13,864 bases of DNA. Source: Thermoplasmata archaeon. Lineage in GTDB: Archaea; Thermoplasmatota; Thermoplasmata; Thermoplasmatales; Thermoplasmataceae. A program made the translations under genes and the position numbers. Below are positions 107-13,264 of this stretch, in pieces; the first letter of the stretch is position 1, and each line of letters opens with the position of its first letter. Under the pieces are notes generated by a model. The model worked only from the letters and a program-made list of their open reading frames with translations. It was not told the DNA's origin and made no database searches. The stretch is taken from assembly GCA_021835185.1 (NCBI GenBank), contig JAKBQO010000024.1:1-13864 (forward strand), written 5' to 3'.

Positions 107-835
107 ATGATTGTAATTAAGATCGGCGGGAGCATTATAACAGATAAATCAATGTATAAAAAATTCAATGGGCAAATAGTAGAAAACATTGTTAAAACTC
201 TAAAACGTATAGATAAACAAATGGTAATAATTCATGGGGGTGGTTCTTTTGGCCATATAAAATCTAAAGAATATGGTTTGCCAGGCCAGGTTTCTGAAAG
301 AACAATGGAGGGCATGAATATCGTACATAATGATATGGCAGAATTGGATCTTAAAATTTCAAAAATTTTTCAGGAAAATAAAATCTATAATATTTCACTT
401 CCTGTTTCATCACTTGTTTATAATAATAAAAAAAATTATAATATTTTTTCAAAATATCTGGAACTGGGCATAACCCCCATTTCATATGGAGATACATACA
501 TACATGGCAATGAAATAGGTATATACTCTGGCGATAATATTGCATATGATATTTCAAAAATATTGCATCCCGAATTTGTAATATTCTTTTCAGACGTTGA
601 TGGCATATTCGATAAAAATCCGAAAAATAACCCTGATGCAAAGCTCTTAAAAACAATTTCAACAGATTTTCAATATGATACTATTAATCCAGATGTCACA
701 GGAGGAATAATGAATAAATATAATAAAATGAAACTAATTTCTGATATAGGAATACCTGTATACCTCATTAATGGACTTTATCCGGAACGAATATATAATA
801 TAGGAAAGGATAATTTTACAGGAACGGTGGTTTAA
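107..835 (+). CDS. ipk: Isopentenyl phosphate kinase
   Basis: This 242-residue amino acid kinase family protein phosphorylates isopentenyl phosphate to isopentenyl diphosphate with ATP in the cytoplasm. It is the last kinase step of the modified archaeal mevalonate routes. The N-terminus MIVIKIGGSIITDK carries the nucleotide-binding lysine (K5) and glycine loop. HGGGSFGH at 43-50 ends in H50, the position of the histidine that binds the substrate phosphate in the Thermoplasma enzyme. The region around residues 164-172 (FFSDVDGIFDKNP) and the later DVTGGIMNK are typical family ATP-site motifs. The reading frame is open back to an ATG at position 8, but those 33 extra residues are not family-like and would remove the leaderless promoter geometry, so the ATG at 107 is chosen. 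The stop overlaps the next start as TAATG. Function is confident from motifs and length; substrate specificity is family knowledge. Confidence 0.92.
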   Translation: MIVIKIGGSIITDKSMYKKFNGQIVENIVKTLKRIDKQMVIIHGGGSFGHIKSKEYGLPGQVSERTMEGMNIVHNDMAELDLKISKIFQENKIYNISLPVSSLVYNNKKNYNIFSKYLELGITPISYGDTYIHGNEIGIYSGDNIAYDISKILHPEFVIFFSDVDGIFDKNPKNNPDAKLLKTISTDFQYDTINPDVTGGIMNKYNKMKLISDIGIPVYLINGLYPERIYNIGKDNFTGTVV

Positions 836-1884
836 TGATAGAAAACAGAAAGGAAGAGCATATTAATATTGCTGAGAATATGAATGTTACTTCAGAGCAC
901 AATTTCTGGGATGATATTAGATTAATACACAGGGCTATACCTGAAGTTGATTATGATTCTATAAATACAAAAATTAATTTTCTAGGAACTGAATTCGGTT
1001 TGCCATTCCTTATATCTTCCATGACAGGCGGTACTGAAAAAGCAAGAAAAATAAACGAAAACCTTGCCAGGGCAGCTGAAGAATTCAAGATAGGCATGGG
1101 TGTTGGGAGCATGAGGGCTGCTATAGAAAATAAAAATATAGCAGATACATTTTCAGTTATAAATAATTATAAGATACCGGCAAGATTTGCAAACATCGGG
1201 GCACCACAGCTAATCGGGCAGGAAAAGCCTCCTATTTCTGATAAAGACATTGAATACATATTCAATCTTATAGGTGCTAAATACCTGATTGTCCATTTTA
1301 ATTTTTTACAGGAAATGGTACAGCCGGAAGGGGACAAAAATGCTAGAGGAGTGATGTCAAGGCTAAAGGAAATAGCAAAATCTTATCCTGTCATAGCTAA
1401 AGAAACCGGCAGCGGATTCTCAAGGGATGATGCTCTGGAACTAAAAGATGCAGGTGTCAAAGCAATAGATGTTGGGGGTCTTGGTGGCACTTCATTTGCT
1501 GCAATAGAATATTACAGGGCTGAAAAAATTCAGAATAAAGAAAAAATGCACACCGGCCAGACATTCTGGAACTGGGGAGTACCTTCACCAGCATCTATTA
1601 AATTCTGTTCCGTTGGTTTGCCAATTATAGGGAGTGGAGGAATAAGAAATGGCCAGGACGTAGTAAAATCTATAATTATGGGGGCAGACATGGGTGCTAT
1701 GGCGAGGAATTTCCTAAAGGACGCAGACACATCATACGAAGATCTGGTATTCCATATAAAAAATATAATAAAAGATATTAAAATTTCTATGTTTTTAACA
1801 GCTTCGAAGGATGTATCAGAACTTAAAAACAAAAGATATATAGTTTTAGATCCATTATATTCATGGCTAAACCAGGGTGATTAA
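835..1884 (+). CDS. fni: Type II isopentenyl-diphosphate delta-isomerase (FMN-dependent)
   Basis: This 349-residue TIM-barrel flavoprotein interconverts isopentenyl and dimethylallyl diphosphate using reduced FMN, NAD(P)H and Mg2+. Visible motifs in order are RKEEHI (5-10), SSMTGGT (61-67), GVGSMRA (89-95), H154 and N156 with Q159-E160 (the conserved catalytic Gln and the Mg2+ ligand Glu), K189 in AKETGSG, GGLGGTSFAAIE (214-225) and the C-terminal FMN phosphate loop GSGGIRNGQD (266-275). The length matches the archaeal enzymes. It starts in the TAATG overlap with the kinase stop and ends directly against the next ATG, so it is almost certainly co-transcribed and translationally coupled. Together with the upstream kinase it supplies both C5 units for ether lipid synthesis. 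No missing catalytic residue was seen. Confidence 0.95.
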   Translation: MIENRKEEHINIAENMNVTSEHNFWDDIRLIHRAIPEVDYDSINTKINFLGTEFGLPFLISSMTGGTEKARKINENLARAAEEFKIGMGVGSMRAAIENKNIADTFSVINNYKIPARFANIGAPQLIGQEKPPISDKDIEYIFNLIGAKYLIVHFNFLQEMVQPEGDKNARGVMSRLKEIAKSYPVIAKETGSGFSRDDALELKDAGVKAIDVGGLGGTSFAAIEYYRAEKIQNKEKMHTGQTFWNWGVPSPASIKFCSVGLPIIGSGGIRNGQDVVKSIIMGADMGAMARNFLKDADTSYEDLVFHIKNIIKDIKISMFLTASKDVSELKNKRYIVLDPLYSWLNQGD

Positions 1885-2385
1885 ATGGATGAAAAGAAAA
1901 CAGAATCAAGATGCCCGAATTGCAATAGTTTTTTATATTATATTGAAGCAGACAATGAAATACCATACGAAGGCAAAATTACCATACATACATACGTATG
2001 CAAAAATTGCAACTATAAAAATATCACTATAGACAGGCATGAAAAGGGAGAGCCAAAAATTATAAAGTTTAAGATAAAGAATAAGAACGATTTAAAAACA
2101 ATAGTTTACCGGTCTCCAGACGCAAGTGTCCATATTCCAGAACTGGAGGCTGAAATATCCCCTGGAATAGCATCTAAGGGCTATATCACAACTATAGAAG
2201 GCATATTAACAAGCATAAAAGAGAAACTTTCTATCATGGGCGACGATGAAAATATAAATGTACTGAGGCAAAGAATAGAAGGTATAATAAGCGGCGCAGA
2301 GGAGAGCGTAACCATAATACTGGACGATGATTCAGGGCAGAGCAGGATTAATAGCAGCAGGGTTGAAATAATTAAAAAGAAATAG
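1885..2385 (+). CDS. ZPR1-type zinc-finger protein
   Basis: This 166-residue protein belongs to the archaeal single-domain ZPR1 family. The zinc finger is C10-x2-C13 and C39-x2-C42, with 25 residues between the cysteine pairs, the spacing typical of ZPR1. The following part (about 60-110) has the family pattern of a beta domain with YRSPDASVHIPELEAEISPG and a GYITTIEGIL helix start. Eukaryotic ZPR1 has two such units and binds translation factor eEF1A. The archaeal single-unit role is not established, though an EF1A chaperone-like job is a reasonable inference. It begins immediately after the isomerase stop with no gap, so it shares the isoprenoid transcript. The last 15 or so residues are polar and probably flexible. 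Confidence 0.85.
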   Translation: MDEKKTESRCPNCNSFLYYIEADNEIPYEGKITIHTYVCKNCNYKNITIDRHEKGEPKIIKFKIKNKNDLKTIVYRSPDASVHIPELEAEISPGIASKGYITTIEGILTSIKEKLSIMGDDENINVLRQRIEGIISGAEESVTIILDDDSGQSRINSSRVEIIKKK

Positions 2386-2432: not shown

Positions 2433-3329
2433 ATGATAGAAATTTTACACCTTTCAAAATCATTTAAAAATTTTAAAGCAGTATCAGATTTAAACCTTGA
2501 AATAAACAACGGGCAAATAATGGGGCTTGCAGGCCTGAATGGTGCCGGAAAAACAACAACAATAAGGGCTGCATGCGGTATAATATTTCCAACTTCAGGA
2601 ACGATCACCGTTAATAATTTTGATATAGTTAAAGAAAAAATAAAAGCATCCAGAAACATTGGCTGGGTTCCGGAACTGCCAAATTTTGAACCAGATGCCA
2701 GGCCAGTACCCCTTCTGAAATATTATGCAGGATTTTACGGTATAAAACCGGACGAAGCGGAGAAAAATGCTATTGAAATGATGAAACAGTTTGATATTTA
2801 CAATTACAGGAATAGAAAATTAAAGTATTACTCCCAGGGAATGAAAAAGAGATTTGCACTCATAGCTGCAATGATAGGAAATCCTGACAATTATCTTTTC
2901 GATGAAACATTGAATGGGCTTGATCCAAACGGTGTTAAAGAGGTAAGGGATTTAATTATTAATCTAAAAAAGCAGGGAAAATCTATACTCCTTTCATCCC
3001 ACATATTATCTGAACTGCAGAACGTTGCAGACAAAATTGCAATAGTAAAGAATGGTTCTGTAGTCAAAACGCTTTCAAGGGATGATCTGATGCATCTAGG
3101 GACAACAGGAACAAAAATACACATAAAAAACCCCGATGCCGGTATGGAAAAAATATTATCGGAATTCGGGGAATTTACATCAGATGGCACCTATTATTAC
3201 ATCAAAAATAATGGTGAAGTTGATGTTTCTGAACTTAACAGGCAACTTGTAATTAAAAATTACAGGGTGGATTATATCAGCATGGAGAATGAAACACTGG
3301 AAGATTACTTTTTGAATATGGTGAAATAA
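2433..3329 (+). CDS. ABC transporter ATP-binding protein (ABC-2 / drug-exporter type)
   Basis: This 298-residue nucleotide-binding subunit would power the permease encoded next. Walker A is GLNGAGKT (34-41). A degenerate signature YSQGMKKR (133-140) is typical of the ABC-2/CcmA-like exporter ATPases. Walker B with the catalytic Glu is LFDE (155-158), the D-loop is NGLDP and the switch histidine is H190. The Q-loop position reads WVPE with Glu (E81) in place of Gln, a variant also found in this subfamily. After about residue 210 comes the extra C-terminal domain of roughly 90 residues common to these ATPases. The permease gene starts 1 base after the stop, so the pair is an operon. The substrate cannot be told from sequence; export of a drug, lipid or peptide, or a membrane maintenance role, are all possible. 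Confidence 0.93.
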   Translation: MIEILHLSKSFKNFKAVSDLNLEINNGQIMGLAGLNGAGKTTTIRAACGIIFPTSGTITVNNFDIVKEKIKASRNIGWVPELPNFEPDARPVPLLKYYAGFYGIKPDEAEKNAIEMMKQFDIYNYRNRKLKYYSQGMKKRFALIAAMIGNPDNYLFDETLNGLDPNGVKEVRDLIINLKKQGKSILLSSHILSELQNVADKIAIVKNGSVVKTLSRDDLMHLGTTGTKIHIKNPDAGMEKILSEFGEFTSDGTYYYIKNNGEVDVSELNRQLVIKNYRVDYISMENETLEDYFLNMVK

Positions 3330-3330
3330 G

Positions 3331-4815
3331 ATGAATGGATTTTTATATGATATAAAACGTACTATTACAGGAAAATTTACCATTATACTCATAGTTCTGC
3401 TTGTACTGGTAACCGCAGCATCTGCTTATGGAGCCGGAGTCAGTTCTGACTATGCACATCCAGGCAATACCGCTATCGTAATGCCATATATTAACCAAAC
3501 TGGCAATTCAGTAAATATAACTGATTATGTAATAAATGGCTATGGAGACCCGGTTTCAGGGTTGCATATAACTTCATCTTTATATTACAATTCGAATAAT
3601 AGTTTAATAAAATACTTCAGTGGAACAACCAATAGTACAGGCTATGTTCATTTTATCATTAAGAATTTATCTACAAATTTAACATACCGCTATAACGAAT
3701 ATTACCTGGATGGAATCGCACTGGTTGGATCCAATAATACCATGAATTATTATAATGGGCAGAATATTTTAATAAATGACGCATCCACTTTTGCAGCACC
3801 ATATTATTCAATCAATTTTAACGATTCTAAATATCCATTATATGCAGTAAATTTGAAGGATAAATCTGACCCTGCACTGGTAAGCACAATGATATATAAC
3901 CCGGACTATAAATTCACAGATAGCCCTGATGTCTATTATAATACATCTTCTACGCTTTTAAACACCAATCACTTTAACAAAACGAATACAGTATATATAG
4001 GAAAAGTAAACTCGAACAGGTTTATTGTCACACCACCCCTGAAGACCGCAGATGCCGGCAAATCTGTGAATATTTATATTGTTAACAGCACAGGTGCAGT
4101 GATAGTACCATTTCTAAATTACGAGTACACTTACATAAAGCCCGGTTCAATATTACAGGATGAGCTTGCCATATTTTTCGGTGTATTGCTGATACCAATA
4201 ATGGGGATATTCTCAGCATATTTCTATTACAGCAAGGATAAGACTTCAGGAGTCCTGGAATCAATAATAGTCAGGCCCATAACAAAAGGCAAACTTATGA
4301 TGTCCAGATTTGCTGGAAATTCCGTTAGCTTCCTTGCAGGATTATTGATAGCTCTTGGTCTTGCTGATTTTATCCTGTATCATTATACAGGTGTTTTTAT
4401 ATCATCAGGAACGTTCCTTACAATACTTTTAGGATACCTTGTAGAAATAATAGGATTTGCAGGAATTATTTACCTGGTTTCCCAGTTTGAAAAGACCCAG
4501 GGGCAGGTATTAGGAACAGGGCTTGGAATGTTATTTATTATGGGATTCATGTGGTCAACTATAGTTTCACCAGCTATCCTGTATTTACTGCGTGTTAAAT
4601 CTACGGGAATTGCATATTTCAAGGACCTCCTTATAGTCAATTCTTTTTCTCCATCATATTTCCCTGATTTAATATCGGATTACCATCTCGGTTCATACAG
4701 TACATATAAGGCGTCGGCAGTTGGCATTAACATATATTCTATAATCGCAGTCGGACTTATCTGGATACTGGTTCCGTCTTTACTGGCTTTATATTTTGCC
4801 AGGAAGAAGGACTAG
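3331..4815 (+). CDS. ABC-2 type permease with large outer domain
   Basis: This 494-residue membrane subunit partners the preceding ATPase. Predicted helices lie at about 16-37, 280-300, 327-350, 357-380, 391-418 and 464-490, the six-helix ABC-2 layout. A roughly 240-residue outer domain (40-278) sits between helices 1 and 2. The linker after helix 2 (SKDKTSGVLESIIVRPI, about 301-317) is the conserved coupling region of ABC-2 permeases. The outer domain starts with a stretch (about 65-125, DYVINGYGDPVSG onward) that resembles Ig-like or carboxypeptidase-regulatory-like beta folds. It contains 11 N-x-S/T sequons (N55, N62, N89, N101, N112, N116, N135, N164, N204, N216, N252), which suggests dense N-glycosylation of the cell surface. 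The transporter class is confident; the substrate is unknown. Confidence 0.88.
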   Translation: MNGFLYDIKRTITGKFTIILIVLLVLVTAASAYGAGVSSDYAHPGNTAIVMPYINQTGNSVNITDYVINGYGDPVSGLHITSSLYYNSNNSLIKYFSGTTNSTGYVHFIIKNLSTNLTYRYNEYYLDGIALVGSNNTMNYYNGQNILINDASTFAAPYYSINFNDSKYPLYAVNLKDKSDPALVSTMIYNPDYKFTDSPDVYYNTSSTLLNTNHFNKTNTVYIGKVNSNRFIVTPPLKTADAGKSVNIYIVNSTGAVIVPFLNYEYTYIKPGSILQDELAIFFGVLLIPIMGIFSAYFYYSKDKTSGVLESIIVRPITKGKLMMSRFAGNSVSFLAGLLIALGLADFILYHYTGVFISSGTFLTILLGYLVEIIGFAGIIYLVSQFEKTQGQVLGTGLGMLFIMGFMWSTIVSPAILYLLRVKSTGIAYFKDLLIVNSFSPSYFPDLISDYHLGSYSTYKASAVGINIYSIIAVGLIWILVPSLLALYFARKKD

Positions 4816-4914: not shown

Positions 4915-5142
4915 ATGATTACTACACCGGATGCTATATTGGCTTTGGCAGCTTCAATTGCCATTGCCGGCGGATTGATTGGAACTGGGATGGCTCAACA
5001 GGGTATCGGAGCTGCTGGAATGGGTATAATTGCAGAAAAACCAGAAAAATTTGGTCAGGTATTGTTTTTCTTTGTAATACCGGAAACCCTGTGGATTATT
5101 GGTTTTGTTCTGGGAATTATATTACTGTTGCACGTAATATAA
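4915..5142 (+). CDS. atpK: A-type ATP synthase subunit K (proteolipid c)
   Basis: This 75-residue two-helix hairpin forms the rotor ring in the membrane. Helix 1 (about 8-33) ends in GTGMAQQGIGAAGMG, and helix 2 (about 48-74) contains the ion-carrying glutamate E57 in VIPETLW. The loop EKPEKFG faces the cytoplasmic stalk. Q28 occupies the helix-1 glutamine position of archaeal proteolipids and T58 follows the glutamate, whereas the tyrosine often seen five residues after the glutamate is I62 here. The length is that of a single-hairpin c subunit, with no fused second hairpin. It is the first gene of the operon, preceded by AAGGA five bases before the ATG. A run of six T follows its stop before atpE. 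Identity is secure; H+ versus Na+ coupling is not decided by sequence, though H+ is expected for an acidophile. Confidence 0.95.
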   Translation: MITTPDAILALAASIAIAGGLIGTGMAQQGIGAAGMGIIAEKPEKFGQVLFFFVIPETLWIIGFVLGIILLLHVI

Positions 5143-5148
5143 GAAAGA

Positions 5149-5154
5149 TTTTTT
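5149..5154 (+). promoter_or_regulatory. T6 run between atpK and atpE
   Basis: Six consecutive T lie between the atpK stop and the atpE ATG at 5155. Archaeal RNA polymerase is prone to release at T runs, so partial termination here could yield extra atpK message to match the high copy number of the c ring. This is inference from position; the run is short and the region is AT-rich. Confidence 0.25.
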
Positions 5155-5724
5155 ATGTCACTTGAAAATATATTAAATGAGATAGATAATACGACCCAGG
5201 CAGAGCTCAAAGCCATAAGAGATGAGTATTCTGCCAAAATAGAGGCTATTATAAAATCCTGCAATGATAAAATATCCAGGATTAAGAATTACTATGCTGT
5301 AAAATCTGATAATGATGTTAAGAATATAATAAAGCAGTACGAGGACAATATTAGATTGCAGTCAAAAAAAATCATTGATGACAAAAAAAAGGAAATACTG
5401 GTTAACACTATGCAAAAACTAAGGTCCTATGTCACATCACTTAACAAATCTTCCAATTACCCTGAATTGCTAAAAGCTATGGTTAATGAATCGAAAAAAG
5501 AACTTGGGAATAAGTTCACCGTATACTGTGATGAAATGGAAAACGAGAAACTTCAGGGTTTTAAATTCCCGGATTCAATTAAATTTATTATAGACAAATC
5601 AATAAAATCTGGAATTATAGCGGTCAGTGCAGATGGGAAAAAAGAAGTAGATATGCGCTTAAGCAGTATTTTTGATGAAATTTCATACGATGTAGAAACA
5701 TATCTATATGAAAATATTAAATAA
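5155..5724 (+). CDS. atpE: A-type ATP synthase subunit E (peripheral stalk)
   Basis: This 189-residue stator protein pairs with subunit H to form the peripheral stalks that hold the A3B3 head against rotation. The N-terminal part (about 1-90) is a long charged helix with heptad-like spacing, as expected for a right-handed coiled coil with H. The C-terminal part (about 100-189) is the globular head-binding domain, with the family pattern SGIIAVSADGKKEVDMRLSS near 152-171. The gene starts 12 bases after the atpK stop, and its own stop overlaps the atpC start as TAATG. The sequence is divergent from textbook members, but length, architecture and operon slot agree. Confidence 0.93.
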   Translation: MSLENILNEIDNTTQAELKAIRDEYSAKIEAIIKSCNDKISRIKNYYAVKSDNDVKNIIKQYEDNIRLQSKKIIDDKKKEILVNTMQKLRSYVTSLNKSSNYPELLKAMVNESKKELGNKFTVYCDEMENEKLQGFKFPDSIKFIIDKSIKSGIIAVSADGKKEVDMRLSSIFDEISYDVETYLYENIK

Positions 5725-6785
5725 TGGTGGTTCCAATTAACACTACATATTCAGGAAGTTATGGAAGGTTAAAGATACATTTCAATGATTATCTTAGCGA
5801 TAGTTTTGTAAAATCACTTCTTGAACTTGATATTAAAGATATAAGGTTGAAATTATATGAGACATCATACCGCGATGATATAGATAAAGCTACAACAATA
5901 AGCAATGATGATGTGGATATTCTGATTACAGCAATTAACCGGCATGTGATAAACAATGCTAAAATAGCACTGTTCGCAGTCCCGCCCCAGATAAAATCGT
6001 TTATGAAATCATATGTATCGAAATGGGATATAGAAAGTATAAAGGCGATTATTACTTCTAAAGTTATACACCACGATATAAAATATAATGACAGTTTCAT
6101 AATGAGTTTCAGGGATATCCCTATGGGAATATATGCAGGAAACCTGAAGCGAGATGATTTCAGGGCTATAATGGAAAAAAACGATGTGGATTCTGTGATT
6201 AATTACCTTCTTAATTACGGTTTTAATTATCTGCTGAAAGAGCTGGAAGAATACAAGAAGACAGGAGATACATCATCCCTCCTATCAGCTATGGATTACC
6301 GTTATTATAATGACCTTATTAAAACCGCATTGTTCTATAATGGGGATGAAGGGCAGATTATTAAATATGTAAAAACCGTGGTGGATTTAAAGAATATTCT
6401 TACACTGGCAAAGGCAATTGAGCTCAACGTTCCATTTGAAAAAATAGAAAACAGTATTATAGATAATGGCAATTTTTCCAGAACAGCACTTTCTGATACT
6501 TTCAGGTCTGGAAGTGTTATTGAGCTGCTTTCACTTTTTAAGCATTTTAACATAGATGAAGCTCTGGATTACTATAAAGAAAATAAAAATCTGAGCCAGT
6601 TTGAGATAGGCATGAGAAAGTCATTATTCCATGAATTCGTCCCGGTAATGATCAGGGACACAGCATCTCTCTTTATTTTTGCATATATCCTCTATGCAGA
6701 AAGAGAACGTGATAATCTCAGGACAATAATAATAGGCAAGTCATATAAGCTTGATAATAATACAATAGAGAGGATGCTGATTTAA
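5724..6785 (+). CDS. atpC: A-type ATP synthase subunit C (central stalk to ring connector)
   Basis: This 353-residue subunit is the archaeal counterpart of V-ATPase subunit d. It is a funnel-shaped, all-helical protein that sits on the proteolipid ring and receives the D-F shaft. The sequence is largely alpha-helical with no membrane segments. It has the family pattern of repeated three-helix units, including YRYYNDL near residue 192 and the VDLKNILTLAKAIEL helix (about 216-230) that matches the conserved VDxxNIxxxxR/KA block. The start overlaps the atpE stop by one base. It abuts atpF with no gap, so it is translationally linked on both sides. Length is typical (about 340-370). Confidence 0.93.
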   Translation: MVVPINTTYSGSYGRLKIHFNDYLSDSFVKSLLELDIKDIRLKLYETSYRDDIDKATTISNDDVDILITAINRHVINNAKIALFAVPPQIKSFMKSYVSKWDIESIKAIITSKVIHHDIKYNDSFIMSFRDIPMGIYAGNLKRDDFRAIMEKNDVDSVINYLLNYGFNYLLKELEEYKKTGDTSSLLSAMDYRYYNDLIKTALFYNGDEGQIIKYVKTVVDLKNILTLAKAIELNVPFEKIENSIIDNGNFSRTALSDTFRSGSVIELLSLFKHFNIDEALDYYKENKNLSQFEIGMRKSLFHEFVPVMIRDTASLFIFAYILYAERERDNLRTIIIGKSYKLDNNTIERMLI

Positions 6786-7094
6786 ATGTACGATCTTTGT
6801 TTGATAGGGGAAAGGGAACTTGTAGCAGGCTTTAAATTAGTAGGAATCAACGATACATTTACTGCAGACCCTGAAAATGGGAAATCCATTGTAAAAGAAT
6901 TGTTCAATTCAAAGAAATATAATGTGATTATGGTTTCACAATCATTTGAAAAGTATATGACCCCCGATGAAATAAACTTATACGCAGGGTCTATTAGCCC
7001 GCTTGTAATATTTATTCCCCTGCCAGGAATAAAAGAAGAGGAATCGGTATACGATCTGGCAAAAAAAATTTTGGGCATTGATATTGGTGATTAA
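6786..7094 (+). CDS. atpF: A-type ATP synthase subunit F (central stalk)
   Basis: This 102-residue Rossmann-like protein binds subunit D in the rotating shaft. The N-terminal motif GERELVAGFKLVGI (8-21) is a variant of the conserved GDxDTxxGFxLAGI. The middle part (KYNVIMVSQSFEKYMTPDEI) and the following VIFIPLPG strand are typical of the family. It starts one base after the atpC TAA and abuts the atpA ATG. Nothing is odd apart from the usual small-family divergence. Confidence 0.94.
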   Translation: MYDLCLIGERELVAGFKLVGINDTFTADPENGKSIVKELFNSKKYNVIMVSQSFEKYMTPDEINLYAGSISPLVIFIPLPGIKEEESVYDLAKKILGIDIGD

Positions 7095-8864
7095 ATGGAA
7101 AATAAAGGAAGTATATATAGTATATCTGGACCGGTAGTAATAGCAACAGACCTTGATGGCAAAATGTTTGATGTGGTACGGGTTGGTGAAATGGGCCTCG
7201 TAGGTGAAGTTATAAAAATAGTTGGAGATAAATTTACAATCCAGGTTTATGAAGATACCAGCGGGCTCAAACCAGGCGAACCTGTATATTCAACAGGCAA
7301 ACCCCTCTCTGTCGAACTTGGCCCGGGCCTGCTTAAATCCATATATGATGGAATACAGAGGCCTCTTGATATAATTCAATCAGAAACAGGTGATTTTATA
7401 GTCAGGGGGGCAACAGCACCTCCACTGGATGAAAAGAAAGAATGGGATTTCGTTCCACTGTTAAAGGAAGGGGATGAAGTTGAGCAGGGATATATACTTG
7501 GCACAGTTCAGGAAACTAATATAATAACCCATAAAATTATGGTTCCGTATGGCATTCGTGGCATAATAAAAAGCATAAGCAAAGGAAAATTCAAAGTATC
7601 TGATACTGTATGTATAATCGACACTGGAACTTCCAAATATGATATAAAATTGAAGCAGATATGGCCTGTCAGGCAGGCAAGAAAGGTATTTCTTAAATTT
7701 GCACCTGAAATACCATTAATCACAGGCCAGAGGGTAATAGATTCATTCTTCCCTGTTGCTAAGGGCGGCACTGTAGCAGTTCCGGGCCCATTTGGAAGCG
7801 GGAAGACAGTAATACAGCACCAGCTGTCCAAATGGTCTGATGCAGATATAACCGTTTATGTTGGCTGCGGGGAAAGGGGAAATGAGATGACTGAAATACT
7901 TTCAACATTCCCTGAACTGCAAGATCCCAAGAGCGGAAAACCACTCATGGAAAAAACAATACTTATTGCAAATACTTCCAATATGCCTGTGGCAGCAAGG
8001 GAAGCCAGTATTTATACAGGAGTTACCATAGCTGAATATTACAGGGATATGGGTTATGACGTAGCTCTTATGGCAGATTCAACAAGCAGGTGGGCAGAGG
8101 CACTGAGGGAAATATCTGGAAGATTGGAAGAAATGCCAGGTGAAGAAGGATATCCTGCCTATCTGGGAAGGAGAATATCTGAATTTTATGAAAGATCTGG
8201 AAATGCCCAGATAATAGCACAGGATGAAAGGACAGGCTCTATAACCCTTATAGGAGCAGTATCGCCTCCAGGTGGAGACCTTTCAGACCCGGTTGTGCAG
8301 AATACCTTGAGAGTTACAAGGGCATTCTGGGCTCTTGACGCCTCACTTGCATCCAGAAGGCATTTTCCTTCAATTAACTGGCTTAACAGCTATTCGCTTT
8401 ACCTGGACTCCCTTTCCGGGTGGTTTAAATCAAACGTGAACCCTGAATGGCCACAGATGCATTCACTCATGATGGGTATACTCCAGAAAGAATCAGAGTT
8501 ACAGGAAATTGTGCAGCTGGTGGGATATGACTCATTGCCAGAGAATCAGAAAAACGTTCTGGACATTGCAAAGATTATCAGGGAAGATTTTCTCCAGCAG
8601 AATGCCTTTGATGATACAGATACATACTGTTCAATAAAGAAACAGTATGAAATGCTTACAATTATTAAAACACTTAATGAAATGCAGGAAAAATCCATAG
8701 CTTCTGGATTGAAGTTAACCCAGACTGCAACACTTCCTGTGAGGATGAAAATATCAAGAATGAAAGAAATTCCAGAAAACGACTTTGAGAAATTCTACAA
8801 TGACGTGATAAAGGAAATAAATAATGAATATGATAATATAATGGAGGGTGTTGAAAGTGTCTGA
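7095..8864 (+). CDS. atpA: A-type ATP synthase catalytic subunit A (no intein)
   Basis: This 589-residue catalytic subunit alternates with B in the A3B3 head. In order there is an N-terminal beta barrel (about 1-75), the non-homologous bulge characteristic of A/V-type catalytic subunits (about 110-190), and the nucleotide-binding domain. The latter has Walker A GPFGSGKT (231-238) and [11 protein letters not shown] (257-267) with the catalytic glutamate E260. The sequence continues through [18 protein letters not shown] and [18 protein letters not shown], then the helical C-terminal domain (about 440-589). The P-loop is continuous: the site between K237 and T238, where several Thermoplasmatales carry an intein, is empty. 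The stop overlaps the atpB start by 8 bases, and the atpB Shine-Dalgarno lies inside the last codons of this gene. Confidence 0.98.
8843..8848 (+). promoter_or_regulatory. Strong Shine-Dalgarno that sets the atpB start
   Basis: GGAGGG is complementary to the archaeal 16S anti-Shine-Dalgarno CCUCC. It lies 8 bases before the GTG at 8857, the ideal spacing, but overlaps or nearly touches the alternative in-frame GTG at 8848 and TTG at 8851. It therefore selects 8857 as the start of atpB. It is embedded in the end of the atpA reading frame. Confidence 0.75.
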
Positions 8865-10233
8865 TATTATTTACAGGTCAATTTCACAGATAAATGGTCC
8901 ACTTCTATTTGTGGACGACGTGAAAAATGCATCGTATAATGAAATTGTTAGCATAATACTGGATAACGGAGAGCGTGTTAAAGGCCAGGTACTTGAAACC
9001 AGGAACGGCGTTGCGGTTGTCCAGGTGTTCGGTTCAACTACCAGCATGAGCCCAAAGAGTACCGGGGTATCGTTCACAGGAAGCACATTCAAGCTTCCAG
9101 TATCTGATGATATGCTTGGCAGAATATTCAATGGATTCGGTGAACCGGTAGACAATGGCCCGAAGATTTATTCAAAGGATAAGGTAGATATCACAGGTGC
9201 TGCAATCAATCCATATTCACGTGAAGAGCCAAGTGAATTCATAGAAACGGGAATATCAACCATAGATGGAATGAATACACTTGTTATGGGACAAAAGCTT
9301 CCAATATTCTCTGGAGCAGGATTATCCCATAACAGGCTGGCGACACAGATAGCGAAGCAGGCAAAAACCCTGAAAGGCGGAGAAAAATTTGGTGTTGTAT
9401 TTGGCGCTATTGGAATAACAAGTGAGGAAGCAAACTATTTCATGAAGCAATTTGAGTCGTCAGGCGCACTGTCAGAATCCGTAATATTCCTGAATCTGGC
9501 ATCAGATCCATCCATGGACAGGATAATACTGCCCCGTGTTGCATTAACAACTGCAGAATACCTGGCATATGAGAAAGATATGAACATGCTGGTTATCCTC
9601 ACAGATATGACAAATTACTGTGAAGCACTCCGTGAAATATCATCTTCAAGGGAGGAAATCCCTGGAAGGCGTGGATATCCTGGCTATATGTATACCGATT
9701 TAAGTACAATATATGAAAGGGCAGGAAAAATAAAGGGAAGGAACGGCTCAATCACACAGATACCTATTCTTACAATGCCAGGGGATGATATAACAAACCC
9801 GGTGCCTGACCTTACAGGATATATAACTGAAGGGCAGATAACACTATCAAGAGACCTTAGCAGGAAGGATATATATCCAGAGGTAGATGTCCTTTTATCC
9901 TTATCACGTCTCATGAACCAGGGTATAGGGTCTGACCATACCAGGGAAGACCACAGAGGCCTGGCCGATCAGCTATATTCCTCATATGCAAAGGGAAAAG
10001 ACGCCAGAGCATTAAGTGAGATTGTTGGCGAAGAAGCTTTGAGTGTATCAGATAAAAAGTACCTTCAATTTGCAGAGGATTTTGAAAGCAAATACGTAAA
10101 CCAGGGAGATACTGACCGTTCCATAGAAGAAACTTTGAATCTTGGATGGGACCTGCTTTCAATTTTGCCTAAAGAGGAAATGAAAAAGGTAAAATCCGCA
10201 TATATACCAAAATACGGGAAATGGGAGGAATAA
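8857..10233 (+). CDS. atpB: A-type ATP synthase subunit B (non-catalytic)
   Basis: This 458-residue nucleotide-binding but non-catalytic head subunit alternates with A. A GTG start at 8857 is chosen because GGAGGG lies 8 bases upstream. Starting at 8848 would add three residues not needed by the family. The Walker A position is replaced by SGAGLSHN (152-159), as in other B subunits, so hydrolysis is not expected. The block [20 protein letters not shown] supplies the conserved arginine region facing the catalytic site, followed by YERAGK and the [20 protein letters not shown] stretch. The C-terminus is the helical domain ending [10 protein letters not shown]. The gene overlaps atpA by 8 bases and shares the TAATG overlap with atpD. 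Confidence 0.97.
10223..10228 (+). promoter_or_regulatory. Shine-Dalgarno for atpD
   Basis: GGGAGG lies in the last codons of atpB, 4 bases before the ATG at 10233. The alternative in-frame ATG at 10221 would place this element inside the coding region and has no such signal of its own, so 10233 is preferred. The spacing is a little short. Confidence 0.55.
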
Positions 10234-10871
10234 TGGCAAATACTGTAAGACTTACCAGAATAGAACTTATAAATACGAAAAAACGGATAAAAGTAGCTTC
10301 TAGAGGACTCGAACTCCTGAAAATGAAAAGACAATCCCTGGTAATGGAATTCTTTAAAATTAGCAATGAGGTCAGAGGGCTTAGAGAAAACATCAAAAAT
10401 GATATAGAAAAAGGGTTGAATGCAATTAAAGTGGCAGAGATAATAGATGGAACTCTTGAAATCGAAAGAATTTCATACATGTTTTCTTCGCCAGAAATTA
10501 AAATAGGCGGGAAAAATATAATGGGTGTTACAATTCCTGAAATGTCAGCCCAGGCAGGAAAAAAGATAATTGACGATTCATATCTTGCAAATTCTGTTCC
10601 TGTGTCAATCTATGATGCAATTACACTCTTTAATAAAATATTCAAAGAGCTTCTGGAAGTTTCCCAGAAAGAATCATCAATGCGCAAATTGTTAAATGAA
10701 ATAGACAAGACAAACAGGAGATCCAATGCAATAGAAAATATAATGATTCCAAGGTTTAACAACAACTATAAAATCATCAGGGAGCATCTGGACGAATTGG
10801 AAAGGGATTCATTTGCAACCCTGAAATTTGTAAAAAGCCATGTAGTTTCAACTGGAGAAAATAATAAATAG
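10233..10871 (+). CDS. atpD: A-type ATP synthase subunit D (central shaft)
   Basis: This 212-residue subunit forms the long antiparallel coiled-coil axle inside the A3B3 head, analogous to gamma of F-ATPases. The N-terminus [20 protein letters not shown] and the following GLELLKMKRQSLVMEFF match the conserved first helix (TRxELxxLKKRLxxAxxGxxLLKxKRD). The middle (about 70-125) is a short beta/turn region, and the C-terminal helix carries the second family block, TNRRSNAIENIMIPRFNN (about 162-179). Start choice is given by the TAATG overlap and Shine-Dalgarno. A 32-base gap follows, then a 35-codon ORF. Confidence 0.95.
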   Translation: MANTVRLTRIELINTKKRIKVASRGLELLKMKRQSLVMEFFKISNEVRGLRENIKNDIEKGLNAIKVAEIIDGTLEIERISYMFSSPEIKIGGKNIMGVTIPEMSAQAGKKIIDDSYLANSVPVSIYDAITLFNKIFKELLEVSQKESSMRKLLNEIDKTNRRSNAIENIMIPRFNNNYKIIREHLDELERDSFATLKFVKSHVVSTGENNK

Positions 10872-10903
10872 GTTTGGCCCTATTATATATTCAAAGGGAA
10901 TAT

Positions 10904-11011
10904 ATGGGCAATGTTGAAAAATTCAAAAGGATAAGAAAGATCATACGGATAATAAATATCCTGCTTGCAATAGCATTTATTGCAATACTGATAATGGTGA
11001 TAATTAAATGA
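10904..11011 (+). CDS. Small single-helix membrane protein in the ATP synthase operon
   Basis: This is a 35-residue ORF with ATG at 10904 and TGA at 11009-11011. The N-terminal half is strongly basic (MGNVEKFKRIRKIIR, residues 1-15, eight Lys/Arg-type or polar positions and one Glu). The second half (about 16-34) is an uninterrupted hydrophobic helix of Ile, Leu, Ala, Val, Phe and Met ending in a single Lys. By the positive-inside rule the N-terminus should face the cytoplasm. Its stop overlaps the atpH ATG as ATGA, a classic translational coupling arrangement. A weak purine element AAGGGA lies 4 bases before the ATG. I do not recognise a family. By position it could be an assembly or accessory factor of the Ao sector, in the sense of the small membrane proteins of V- and F-ATPases, but this is inference. 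A chance ORF is possible, though its composition and coupling argue otherwise. Confidence 0.7.
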   Translation: MGNVEKFKRIRKIIRIINILLAIAFIAILIMVIIK

Positions 11012-11331
11012 CAGAAATAGATGAATTGAAGGTAATTAAAAACAAAGAAGAAGCAAAAAAACGTTCCATAGCAGAGCTAAAGGAGGAAATGGAAAAACAG
11101 TTAAACCAGCAAATAGCTGAATGCAATGAAAAGGCAAAAAACCTGGAAAATCAAATAATAAATGATTACAATAAAGCCATAGAGGAAATAAAGAAATCAG
11201 AAAGCAGGAAAATGGCTGATGCACTTGATACCCAGAGAGCCAGATCAAATGTAATGAAAGTTGACATATCTAACAGAAAGCTTGAAGAGAAAGTGTATAA
11301 TCTTATTCTGGAATATATTACTAAAATGTGA
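11008..11331 (+). CDS. atpH: A-type ATP synthase subunit H (peripheral stalk)
   Basis: This 107-residue, highly charged, almost wholly helical protein lacks Pro and Gly through most of its length. It is rich in Lys and Glu in a heptad/hendecad-like pattern (for example KKRSIAELKEEMEKQLNQQ, about 18-36), as expected for the coiled-coil partner of subunit E. Length matches the 100-110 residues of the family. It lies directly before atpI, the usual H-I pairing in archaea, which supports the assignment because sequence conservation in this family is low. Its ATG overlaps the stop of the small membrane ORF, and 4 bases separate its TGA from the atpI ATG. Confidence 0.88.
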   Translation: MTEIDELKVIKNKEEAKKRSIAELKEEMEKQLNQQIAECNEKAKNLENQIINDYNKAIEEIKKSESRKMADALDTQRARSNVMKVDISNRKLEEKVYNLILEYITKM

Positions 11332-11335
11332 TAAA

Positions 11336-13264
11336 ATGCTAAAGCCCGTGAAGATGACAAAAATCAGGATTATTGGCCTGAATACGTATAAAAATAAAAT
11401 AGTAGATGATATGCATGATCTAAATGTTATACAGATAGAGAATGCAGAACCTGAGGTTGCAAAGGTATTCAACACCCAGGGCTCCAACGCCAATTACAAG
11501 GTTTTATCTGAAAATCTATCACGGTTCAAGGGATTTCTTTCAATACTTCCACAGAGGGAAGTTAAACATAAAAAATACTACAGTTCTCCGGAGGAAGTCC
11601 TGGAAGATATATCAAAAATATACATAGCCGGCGAATTAAACAAACTCAAAGATGATGAAGAGAAACTTACAGCAAAGATCCAGGAAAATAAGATTACCTT
11701 AAAACCACTGGAGTTATTATCGGGCTTTGGTGAAGATTTATCAATATTAAATAATGATTACGTTGAAAGTTTTATAATTAAATCGTCAGATGAAACTGAA
11801 AGTCTCAAAACAGATTATGCAACATTCATCAATTTAAATAATGGCTATTCAACCGTTACAATAAATAGAAAAAACGAACCAGAATTTCTTTCCATACTTT
11901 CATCAAAAACCTATGATATGATGAAGATCCCGGAATTGAACGGGACCGTAAAGGAAAATATAGAATTAATCCATAACACCATTAATGAAGCTTCAAACGC
12001 AATAGAGGGAATAAAATCATCCCTTAATGCATTGTCAGATAAATATTATGAACCTGTGGCACAGATAACAGAACAGCTTGAAATATATGTGAAAGAAGAA
12101 GAAATTTTAAGCAATATTGCTTTTTCTGAAAATGCTTTTGCTCTCGAGGGATGGATTCCCGAATCTGAATATGAAAAAGTTTCTTCAGTGCTTAATGAAG
12201 ATTCAAATAACACAATGTTTATCCAGAAGATAGAAACAAAGGAAGACCCTCCAACAAAACTCTCGAATCCAAAGCATTTTAAAATATTCGAATTTTTCAT
12301 AAGATTCTATTCATTGCCAGAGGAGTATGAATTTGATCCGACAATGATATTTGCCCTTGTTTTCCCTGTATTTTTCGGTTTAATGGTTGGTGACGCAGGG
12401 TACGGCCTTGTTATCCTCCTGATATCACTGTTTATAATACACAGGGTTGACCACCCACCGGCAAAGAGCCATATACCAAAAAAATTATCCGGATTTATTC
12501 TTATGATAATGGGAAAGAATTCTTTAAAAACACTCGCAAAAGCACTTATACCATCTTCAATAATCGCAATAATATTTGGTATAGTATTCAATGAATTCTT
12601 TGGATTTACCATATATCCGGTGCCATTCAGGCTCAGTTCCACTCCAGTGCCGGTCATACATATTGGAGAATTGCTGATGATTTCCGGTTATATCGGGCTT
12701 GCTTTTGTCACATTCGGCTTCGTCCTTGGAATAATTAACAATGCGTACATAAATCACAGAAAAGCCGCAGTGGCTAAAGTCGGGTGGATACTGATGGCAT
12801 GGGCCTTTGCAATACTCGGCCTTAATCTAATACACAGGGTCAGCCTTAGCCCCCTGGAAACATCCTCACTTATTGGCTATGTAATGCTCATAGTTGGCTT
12901 TATAACCGTAGTTGTTTTCGAAGGAACACTTAGCCTTATGGAAATTCCATCAATTATTTCACATATACTTTCATACACAAGGATTGTAGGCATACTCCTG
13001 GCATCTGTTGTCCTGGCCCTTGTCATAGACACTGTATTCAGGGCAACATTATCTGACCCATTTTATTTTATAATAATCGGTGTTGTGGTGCTGGTTGTAG
13101 GGCAGCTGTTCAATCTAATAATAGCTGTATTTGAGCCGGGTATACAGGGCGCAAGGCTTCTATACGTGGAATTCTTCTCGAAATTTTATTTTGGGAATGG
13201 AAAGCCATTTTCACCATTCGGGAGCAACAGGCGTTTTACCCTGAAGAAATTCGACAAAAAATAA
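11336..13264 (+). CDS. atpI: A-type ATP synthase subunit I (membrane stator, a-like)
   Basis: This 642-residue stator subunit carries the ion half-channels beside the proteolipid ring. The N-terminus MLKPVKMTKIRIIG is the family signature, so the ATG at 11336 is chosen although the frame is open back to 11261 inside atpH. The cytoplasmic half (about 1-330) is an elongated alpha/beta and coiled-coil arm that binds the E-H stalks. The junction PTKLSNPKHFKIFEFF leads to the membrane half, starting near 335 with FPVFFGLMVGDAGYG, with about eight helices to 625. The essential arginine of the ion path is R549 in LSYTRIVG, preceded by the conserved EGTLSLMEIPSIISHI helix. The last helix contains FEPGIQGARLLYVEFFSKFY with the second conserved arginine. 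All functional residues expected are present. It closes the operon. Confidence 0.96.
   Translation: MLKPVKMTKIRIIGLNTYKNKIVDDMHDLNVIQIENAEPEVAKVFNTQGSNANYKVLSENLSRFKGFLSILPQREVKHKKYYSSPEEVLEDISKIYIAGELNKLKDDEEKLTAKIQENKITLKPLELLSGFGEDLSILNNDYVESFIIKSSDETESLKTDYATFINLNNGYSTVTINRKNEPEFLSILSSKTYDMMKIPELNGTVKENIELIHNTINEASNAIEGIKSSLNALSDKYYEPVAQITEQLEIYVKEEEILSNIAFSENAFALEGWIPESEYEKVSSVLNEDSNNTMFIQKIETKEDPPTKLSNPKHFKIFEFFIRFYSLPEEYEFDPTMIFALVFPVFFGLMVGDAGYGLVILLISLFIIHRVDHPPAKSHIPKKLSGFILMIMGKNSLKTLAKALIPSSIIAIIFGIVFNEFFGFTIYPVPFRLSSTPVPVIHIGELLMISGYIGLAFVTFGFVLGIINNAYINHRKAAVAKVGWILMAWAFAILGLNLIHRVSLSPLETSSLIGYVMLIVGFITVVVFEGTLSLMEIPSIISHILSYTRIVGILLASVVLALVIDTVFRATLSDPFYFIIIGVVVLVVGQLFNLIIAVFEPGIQGARLLYVEFFSKFYFGNGKPFSPFGSNRRFTLKKFDKK

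What the first reader, a model, noticed from the sequence alone, without database searches (positions are those of the whole stretch)
10904..11011. Unannotated 35-residue membrane protein inside the A-ATPase operon, coupled to atpH
Between atpD and atpH lies a short ORF: a basic N-terminal half, then about 19 uninterrupted hydrophobic residues, with an ATGA overlap into atpH. A chance ORF would rarely combine an ideal positive-inside transmembrane helix with exact stop/start coupling. It is below usual gene-calling thresholds and may be an overlooked Ao-sector assembly or accessory subunit, comparable in kind to small membrane helpers of V- and F-ATPases. I know of no named family for it.
Basis: partly seen in the sequence, partly recalled or inferred. 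Interest (0 to 1): 0.7.

Follow-up and report, generated by a model that had tools for sequence, protein, structure and literature searches.

The report
Tiny conserved membrane protein beside atpD
A 35-residue, one-helix membrane protein that is easy for gene callers to miss sits in the ATP-synthase operon of this acid-loving archaeon; its relatives keep a similar tiny gene in the same slot, where the puzzling methanogen protein AhaG also sits.

Summary
The ORF is real and under selection. 10904-11011 encodes 35 residues and overlaps atpH as ATGA. The window is Ferroplasma: the ORF and atpD/H/I match F. acidarmanus Fer1 at 100%. Of 101 atpD loci fetched from the order, 100 carry a small single-helix ORF behind atpD, in one case behind a broken atpD. 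The same test after atpH gave 0 of 86; a strict form gave 1 of 324 other Ferroplasma genes. In near relatives pN/pS is 0.35. In family f5 atpD lies apart from atpB in the 12 genomes checked, and the small ORF is with atpD.

The slot is that of AhaG, a small protein of methanogen A1Ao ATPases whose role is disputed. A 2013 paper reports AhaG missing from Fer1, other acid-mine archaea and T. acidophilum. I read the ORF as the slot counterpart there. Descent from AhaG was tested and not shown, so I do not file it as AhaG. Function is inferred: an accessory or assembly helix of the ATPase that goes with subunit D.

The parts
10904..11011 (+). small ORF, 35 aa, 4.08 kDa calculated: basic N-terminal half, one predicted transmembrane helix (16-34)
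   Evidence: relatives in the same slot; pN/pS 0.35; mass; one helix 3-34 in the AlphaFold2 model, mean pLDDT 92.9
11008..11011 (+). ATGA overlap: stop of the small ORF and start of atpH
10872..10903 (+). 32-nt gap from atpD stop to the small ORF; in many relatives the ORF overlaps atpD or starts within a few bases of its stop
10233..10871 (+). atpD (central stalk subunit D), upstream partner
   Evidence: Pfam ATP-synt_D, E 1e-47
11008..11331 (+). atpH (peripheral stalk, 107 aa), downstream; name from position, length and charged helix-like composition, no Pfam match over cut-off
11336..13264 (+). atpI (membrane stator subunit)
   Evidence: Pfam V_ATPase_I
4915..10233 (+). rest of the operon: K 4915-5142, E 5155-5724, C 5724-6785, F 6786-7094, A 7095-8864, B 8848-10233 (E named by position only, no Pfam match over cut-off)

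Best explanation
The ORF is a real gene for a single-pass membrane protein, probably N-terminus-in with its basic half at the cytosolic face, translated in step with its neighbours (atpH opens at its stop). It fills the slot just after atpD that AhaG fills in methanogen operons. Most likely it is an accessory or assembly helix of the A1Ao ATPase: the basic stretch meets the membrane-proximal end of the central stalk (D, F, C) while the helix packs against the K ring or subunit I, helping to join or hold A1 on Ao. Shown: the gene, its slot, its conservation, selection on the protein, its staying with atpD. Inferred: translation, topology, binding to the ATPase. Speculative: which subunit it touches.
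For: Slot: 100 of 101 order loci (97 of 98; L045 behind a broken atpD; L121 and L126), and 41 of 68 loci sampled across the phylum, two of them repeats from the order set. Control junction after atpH 0 of 86 and genome background 1 of 324 strict. Selection: pN/pS 0.35 in frame against 0.57 and 0.98 in the other frames; mismatches by codon position 0.268, 0.136, 0.389. Topology: N-side flank more positive than C-side in 92 of 95 chosen members. Tie to D: in family f5 atpB is 117 kb (G064) and 160 kb (G068) from atpD and on another contig in 10 of 10 more genomes, yet the small ORF follows atpD in all 12.
Against: No expression, proteomic or structural evidence was available. L130 lacks the ORF and 27 of 68 phylum loci lack a hydrophobic ORF at the atpD stop (L177 and L134 have only 116 and 248 nt of downstream sequence), so the enzyme can do without it in other lineages. 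The members fall into at least two sequence groups with no proven relation, so shared function across them is an assumption. Five bacterial V-type operons have no such ORF at the atpD stop. No PDB chain matches. Different contigs in fragmented assemblies do not prove distance between atpB and atpD.
Confidence: 0.6

Rival explanations
1. It is AhaG itself by descent, shortened and diverged beyond recognition in the acidophile lineages.
For: Same slot, similar size and topology. Weak profile signals: the Ferroplasma-side profile against f5 plus Methanobacteria, 0 of 100 column shuffles as good; Ferroplasma against f8, 0 of 60; rest of f1 against f5, 0 of 60.
Against: Those signals have low probabilities (15.8, 43.2 and 12.2). 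Other pairs fall inside the shuffles, e.g. Ferroplasma against f11 42 of 60 and against Methanobacteria 17 of 60, merged groups 14 of 100. Against 75 topology-matched decoy helices the AUC is 0.444 and 0.498. The atpD of f1 itself is only about 32% identical to that of f5, so the two operon types are old or of different origin.
Confidence: 0.4
2. It is mainly a translational relay: ribosomes that finish it restart on atpH and so set the dose of H and I; the peptide itself does little.
For: ATGA overlap with atpH; 57 of 95 chosen members end in ATGA, GTGA or TTGA.
Against: A relay needs no conserved protein, but pN/pS is 0.35 and one hydrophobic helix with a positive N side is kept. In f5 the ORF follows atpD where no H or I match was found nearby (one genome).
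Confidence: 0.1
3. It is a small regulator, for example an inhibitor or a gate of the membrane sector, rather than an assembly or structural helix.
For: Small membrane proteins can act as regulators; co-expression with the enzyme fits (inference). AtpTheta of cyanobacteria is cited as an F-type inhibitor in a reference list seen.
Against: Nothing here points to conditional expression; the gene is embedded in the operon.
Confidence: 0.15
4. It is a chance ORF.
For: It is only 35 codons long, and the loose test is met after 37 of 324 genes in this genome.
Against: Conserved slot, purifying selection and control junctions.
Confidence: 0.01

Closest known systems
AhaG of methanogen A1Ao ATP synthases (Methanosarcina mazei; Methanothermobacter)
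   Same: Gene next to ahaD (Methanothermobacter order ahaGDBAFCEKIH, PMC3087415 passages); very small and hydrophobic (6.3 kDa, one very hydrophobic tryptic peptide, PMC4350412 passages).
   Different: Shorter here (35 aa, 4.08 kDa). No sequence link proven to the group that holds Methanobacteria proteins.
Post-atpD small membrane ORFs of other Thermoplasmatota (f5 Aciduliprofundum, f8, f9, f11 and others)
   Same: Same slot, one helix, about 40-55 aa in most.
   Different: Many carry a stretch such as FFDTPEKKAKW that Ferroplasma lacks; different sequence group.
Small membrane-sector subunits and assembly factors of V- and F-type ATPases (Vma9/e, Vma21, AtpI/AtpZ; recalled)
   Same: Very small membrane proteins tied to a rotary ATPase.
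   Different: No Pfam or NCBIfam match over cut-off for the window protein (Pfam), and no convincing match for alignment members; no PDB chain match. Several of those have two helices (recalled).

Membership tests
AhaG | gene directly after the atpD/ahaD gene in an A1Ao operon | tested here: met
   methanogen order from PMC3087415 passages
AhaG | very small, hydrophobic, about 6 kDa | tested here: inconclusive
   4.08 kDa in Ferroplasma, 6.6 kDa in L095; AhaG's own sequence not seen, so its topology could not be compared
AhaG | sequence similarity to the group with Methanobacteria and f5 proteins | tested here: not met
   AUC 0.444 and 0.498 against 75 decoys; merged profiles 14 of 100 shuffles as good; single weak positives
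AhaG | similarity to authentic Methanosarcina or Methanothermobacter AhaG | not testable with these tools
   no named methanogen genome could be reached; 7 of the 14 'Methanobacteria' proteins carry a Methanobrevibacter or Methanobacterium name, the rest are grouped by similarity, and their slot was not checked
AhaG | presence in the purified ATPase | not testable with these tools
   open for M. mazei itself (PMC4350412 passages)
Any Pfam family | match over the curated cut-off | tested here: not met
   window protein: DUF677, 11 bits against 29.1; best for any of 39 members of A1 E 0.0026, of 17 members of A4 E 0.012; cut-offs not shown for those
Any NCBIfam family | match over the curated cut-off | tested here: not met
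   best for any of 39 members of A1, which includes the window protein, E 0.0032; of 17 members of A4 E 0.0035; cut-off shown only for the first member of A4 (15.2 bits against 40)

The most novel reading that the evidence does not exclude
Archaeal A1Ao ATPases of this phylum commonly carry an unrecognised single-helix subunit encoded after atpD and moving with subunit D; lineages said in print to lack AhaG filled the slot with a helix so small and divergent that it was missed. If so, it is a part at the foot of the stalk or at the rotor that current subunit lists of A-type ATPases leave out.
Probability: 0.35. Interest if true: 0.75.

Novelty: new variant of a known kind. Interest (0 to 1): 0.52.

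Why it matters
[quoted passage not shown] acidophilum lack it (PMC3750248, passages), rests on an absence that short-gene blindness may explain: the slot is filled in Fer1, in I-plasma and in a Thermoplasma that I could tie to a name. The open question whether A-type ATPases have a G subunit becomes testable in organisms that can be grown, by looking in purified complexes for one defined small peptide.

Tried and rejected
Chance ORF: rejected. RNA element in the gap: no Rfam match over threshold in the window. Known domain: none over cut-off for the window protein, nothing convincing for relatives. Solved relative: none. Descent from AhaG by profile comparison: mixed in the first round, merged profiles mostly inside the shuffle range, decoy test negative; I dropped 'ortholog of AhaG' as a claim. 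Bacterial V-type operons: five plasmid-borne atpD places, none with an ORF of hydropathy >=1.6 starting within 60 nt of the atpD stop. A second small hydrophobic gene behind atpB in Aciduliprofundum, where atpD has moved away: none on the atpB strand behind it in L205 and L207. Papers: the first AhaG search held no paper; of 72 papers with the word 'ahag' 40 were listed and two of those concern archaea; a search with ntpH terms listed no paper that holds the word ntpH; one on Ferroplasma and small proteins listed nothing on this ORF. I claim no more than these searches about what is in print. The structure model is a lone helix and says nothing of partners; no fold search was run.

Full report
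What is there. The genome is one contig of 1,826,943 bases. atpD, atpH, atpI and the ORF are 100% identical in protein to Ferroplasma acidarmanus Fer1 (L031), so the window is a Ferroplasma.

Is it more than chance? By sequence the protein is found at E <= 5.3e-4 in 12 of 101 genomes searched, own genome included, in the same genus and one other (g18), each time between atpD and atpH. Of the 21 weaker rows, five lie in the slot: four (L013, L018, L020, L023) and G047:C130 by its coordinates; the rest lie elsewhere and look like chance helix matches. I then searched atpD in 117 genomes of the order: 103 had a match, and 101 loci were fetched. A small ORF with one hydrophobic segment stands at the atpD stop in 97 of the 98 loci where the window's atpD query placed the gene. 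The miss, L045, has an atpD with a premature stop and the intact ORF further on. Of the other three loci two have it and L130 does not. Total 100 of 101. The same test after atpH gave 0 of 86. In 400 kb of the window's genome the strict test was met after 1 of 324 genes, never with coupling to a next gene, and the loose test after 37 of 324. One case alone would therefore be unremarkable; the repetition at one slot is what counts.

Selection. Over 12 loci aligned without gaps (66 pairs) pooled pN/pS is 0.35 in the reading frame and 0.57 and 0.98 in the other two; mismatch rates by codon position are 0.268, 0.136 and 0.389. Several pairwise synonymous distances are near saturation, so the single dN/dS values of that call are rough. 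Phe7 and Asn18 are invariant in the 26 sequences of A5 but not in the wider A1.

Shape. The 95 chosen members run from 30 to 60 residues. The N-side flank is more positive than the C-side in 92 of 95, which fits an N-in helix. In 17 of 95 my TM core holds a charged residue; the 12 that were printed belong to genera g3 and g12. AlphaFold2 gives one helix, residues 3-34, mean pLDDT 92.9, pTM 0.52; a lone helix is easy to predict and adds little.

Where else. In the phylum sample (145 genomes searched, 68 loci read) 41 of 68 loci have a hydrophobic small ORF at the atpD stop and 27 do not. Two of the 41 repeat genomes of the order set (L145, L151). Two of the 27 have little downstream sequence (L134 248 nt, L177 116 nt). 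Positives lie in 13 families; 21 families have at least one miss, f7 and f8 being in both lists. Many positives share a stretch such as FFDTPEKKAKW before the helix. So the slot is widely but not universally filled.

In family f5, to which it belongs, atpB lies about 117 kb from atpD in G064 and 160 kb in G068, and on another contig in 10 of 10 further genomes (contig breaks could hide closeness in the fragmented ones). The small ORF follows atpD in all 12. So it stays with D both where H and I follow (Ferroplasma) and where atpD has left the operon. In an 11-kb stretch of G064 around atpD no other ATPase subunit of the window matched (L201).

AhaG in print. Methanothermobacter has ahaGDBAFCEKIH, G next to D (PMC3087415, passages). 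M. mazei AhaG is 6.3 kDa; a band was reported after heterologous expression; homologs are said to be absent in several archaea; its participation in the enzyme is called a persisting question (PMC4350412, passages). A description of the M. acetivorans operon stops at D (PMC2838876, passages). A 2013 study of A-, E-, G-, Iplasma, Fer1 and Fer2 states that all of its acid-mine archaeal genomes are missing an ortholog of AhaG, that T. [quoted passage not shown] In my data the slot is filled in Fer1 (L031), in I-plasma (P0016 has the sequence of L111; contig 550,830 = G066:C1) and in a Thermoplasma (P0010 has the sequence of L096; contig 23,275 = G013:C10). That does not contradict the paper outright, since sequence orthology to AhaG remains unproven.

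Is it AhaG? On one side, Ferroplasma and the rest of f1 (hhalign probability 96.6) and f1 and f3 (93.6) are linked, each with 0 of 60 column shuffles as good; on the other, f5 and the Methanobacteria set (98.3) and f11 and the Methanobacteria set (94.3), each 0 of 60, and f5 and f11 (51.5, 0 of 60). f8 sits loosely with the second group (against f5 8 of 60, f11 5 of 60, Methanobacteria 1 of 60). Between the groups the signal is weak and inconsistent. Ferroplasma against f8 gives 43.2 and 0 of 60; the rest of f1 against f5 12.2 and 0 of 60; Ferroplasma against f5 17.5 and 2 of 60; but Ferroplasma against f11 42 of 60 and against Methanobacteria 17 of 60; the rest of f1 against f8 27 of 60, f11 11 of 60, Methanobacteria 9 of 60; f3 against f5 16 of 60 and f11 48 of 60. 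Merged: against f5 plus Methanobacteria 15.8 and 0 of 100; against the whole second group 3.2 and 14 of 100; without f5 24 of 100. With 75 topology-matched helices of the window's genome as decoys, neither group's HMM ranks the other group above decoys (AUC 0.444 and 0.498). So I do not file it as AhaG. What stands is a shared slot, small size and one helix. The Methanobacteria label is by name for 7 of 14 proteins and by similarity for the rest, and their own slot was not checked.

Origin. Acidophile V-type-like operons are thought to have moved between archaeal phyla, with Thermoplasmatales as a possible donor (PMC6863869, passages). The window's atpD is about 32% identical to that of G064. 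Two operon types, each with its own small helix gene after atpD, would fit the two sequence groups; this is a suggestion, not a result.

Mechanism. I think it most likely serves the ATPase as an accessory or assembly helix tied to subunit D: made next to D, inserted N-in, basic half facing the stalk foot, helix against the K ring or subunit I. The gene, slot, selection and staying with D are shown; translation and topology are inferred; the contacts are conjecture. That many lineages lack it (27 of 68 loci) fits a stabilising or assembly role better than a catalytic one.

Verdict. Interest 0.52.

Noticed in passing
L099-L112 (family f3, includes I-plasma L111), from about 70-150 nt after the atpD stop: A 102-105 aa ORF follows the small ORF in most of these loci, where PMC3750248 reports no AhaH for Iplasma; its relation to AhaH was not tested.
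   Followed up: no
L045 (G001:C82): atpD has an in-frame stop and splits into two matches (frameshift or assembly error), while the small ORF behind it is intact.
   Followed up: no
G064 and G068 and ten more f5 genomes: atpD with the small ORF has left the ATPase operon; atpB lies 117 and 160 kb away in the two one-contig genomes, and on another contig in the ten others.
   Followed up: partly
L202, 2183-4477: The atpA frame of this Thermoplasma genome is 764 codons long and the window's AtpA matches it in two pieces with a gap of about 475 nt between them, as an intein or other insertion would give.
   Followed up: no
window 107-2385: Upstream of the operon: an amino-acid-kinase family gene (107-835), an FMN_dh-like gene (835-1884) and a ZPR1-domain gene (1885-2385) in tight array; by recall an isopentenyl phosphate kinase and a type 2 IPP isomerase.
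   Followed up: no
window 2433-4815: ABC transporter ATPase and ABC-2 type membrane protein genes between the ZPR1-domain gene and atpK.
   Followed up: no
L184, L193 (family f17), at the atpD stop: No hydrophobic small ORF, but an ATG follows the atpD stop within about 12 nt in L184 and at once in L193 with similar bases after it, so another gene may sit in the slot there.
   Followed up: no
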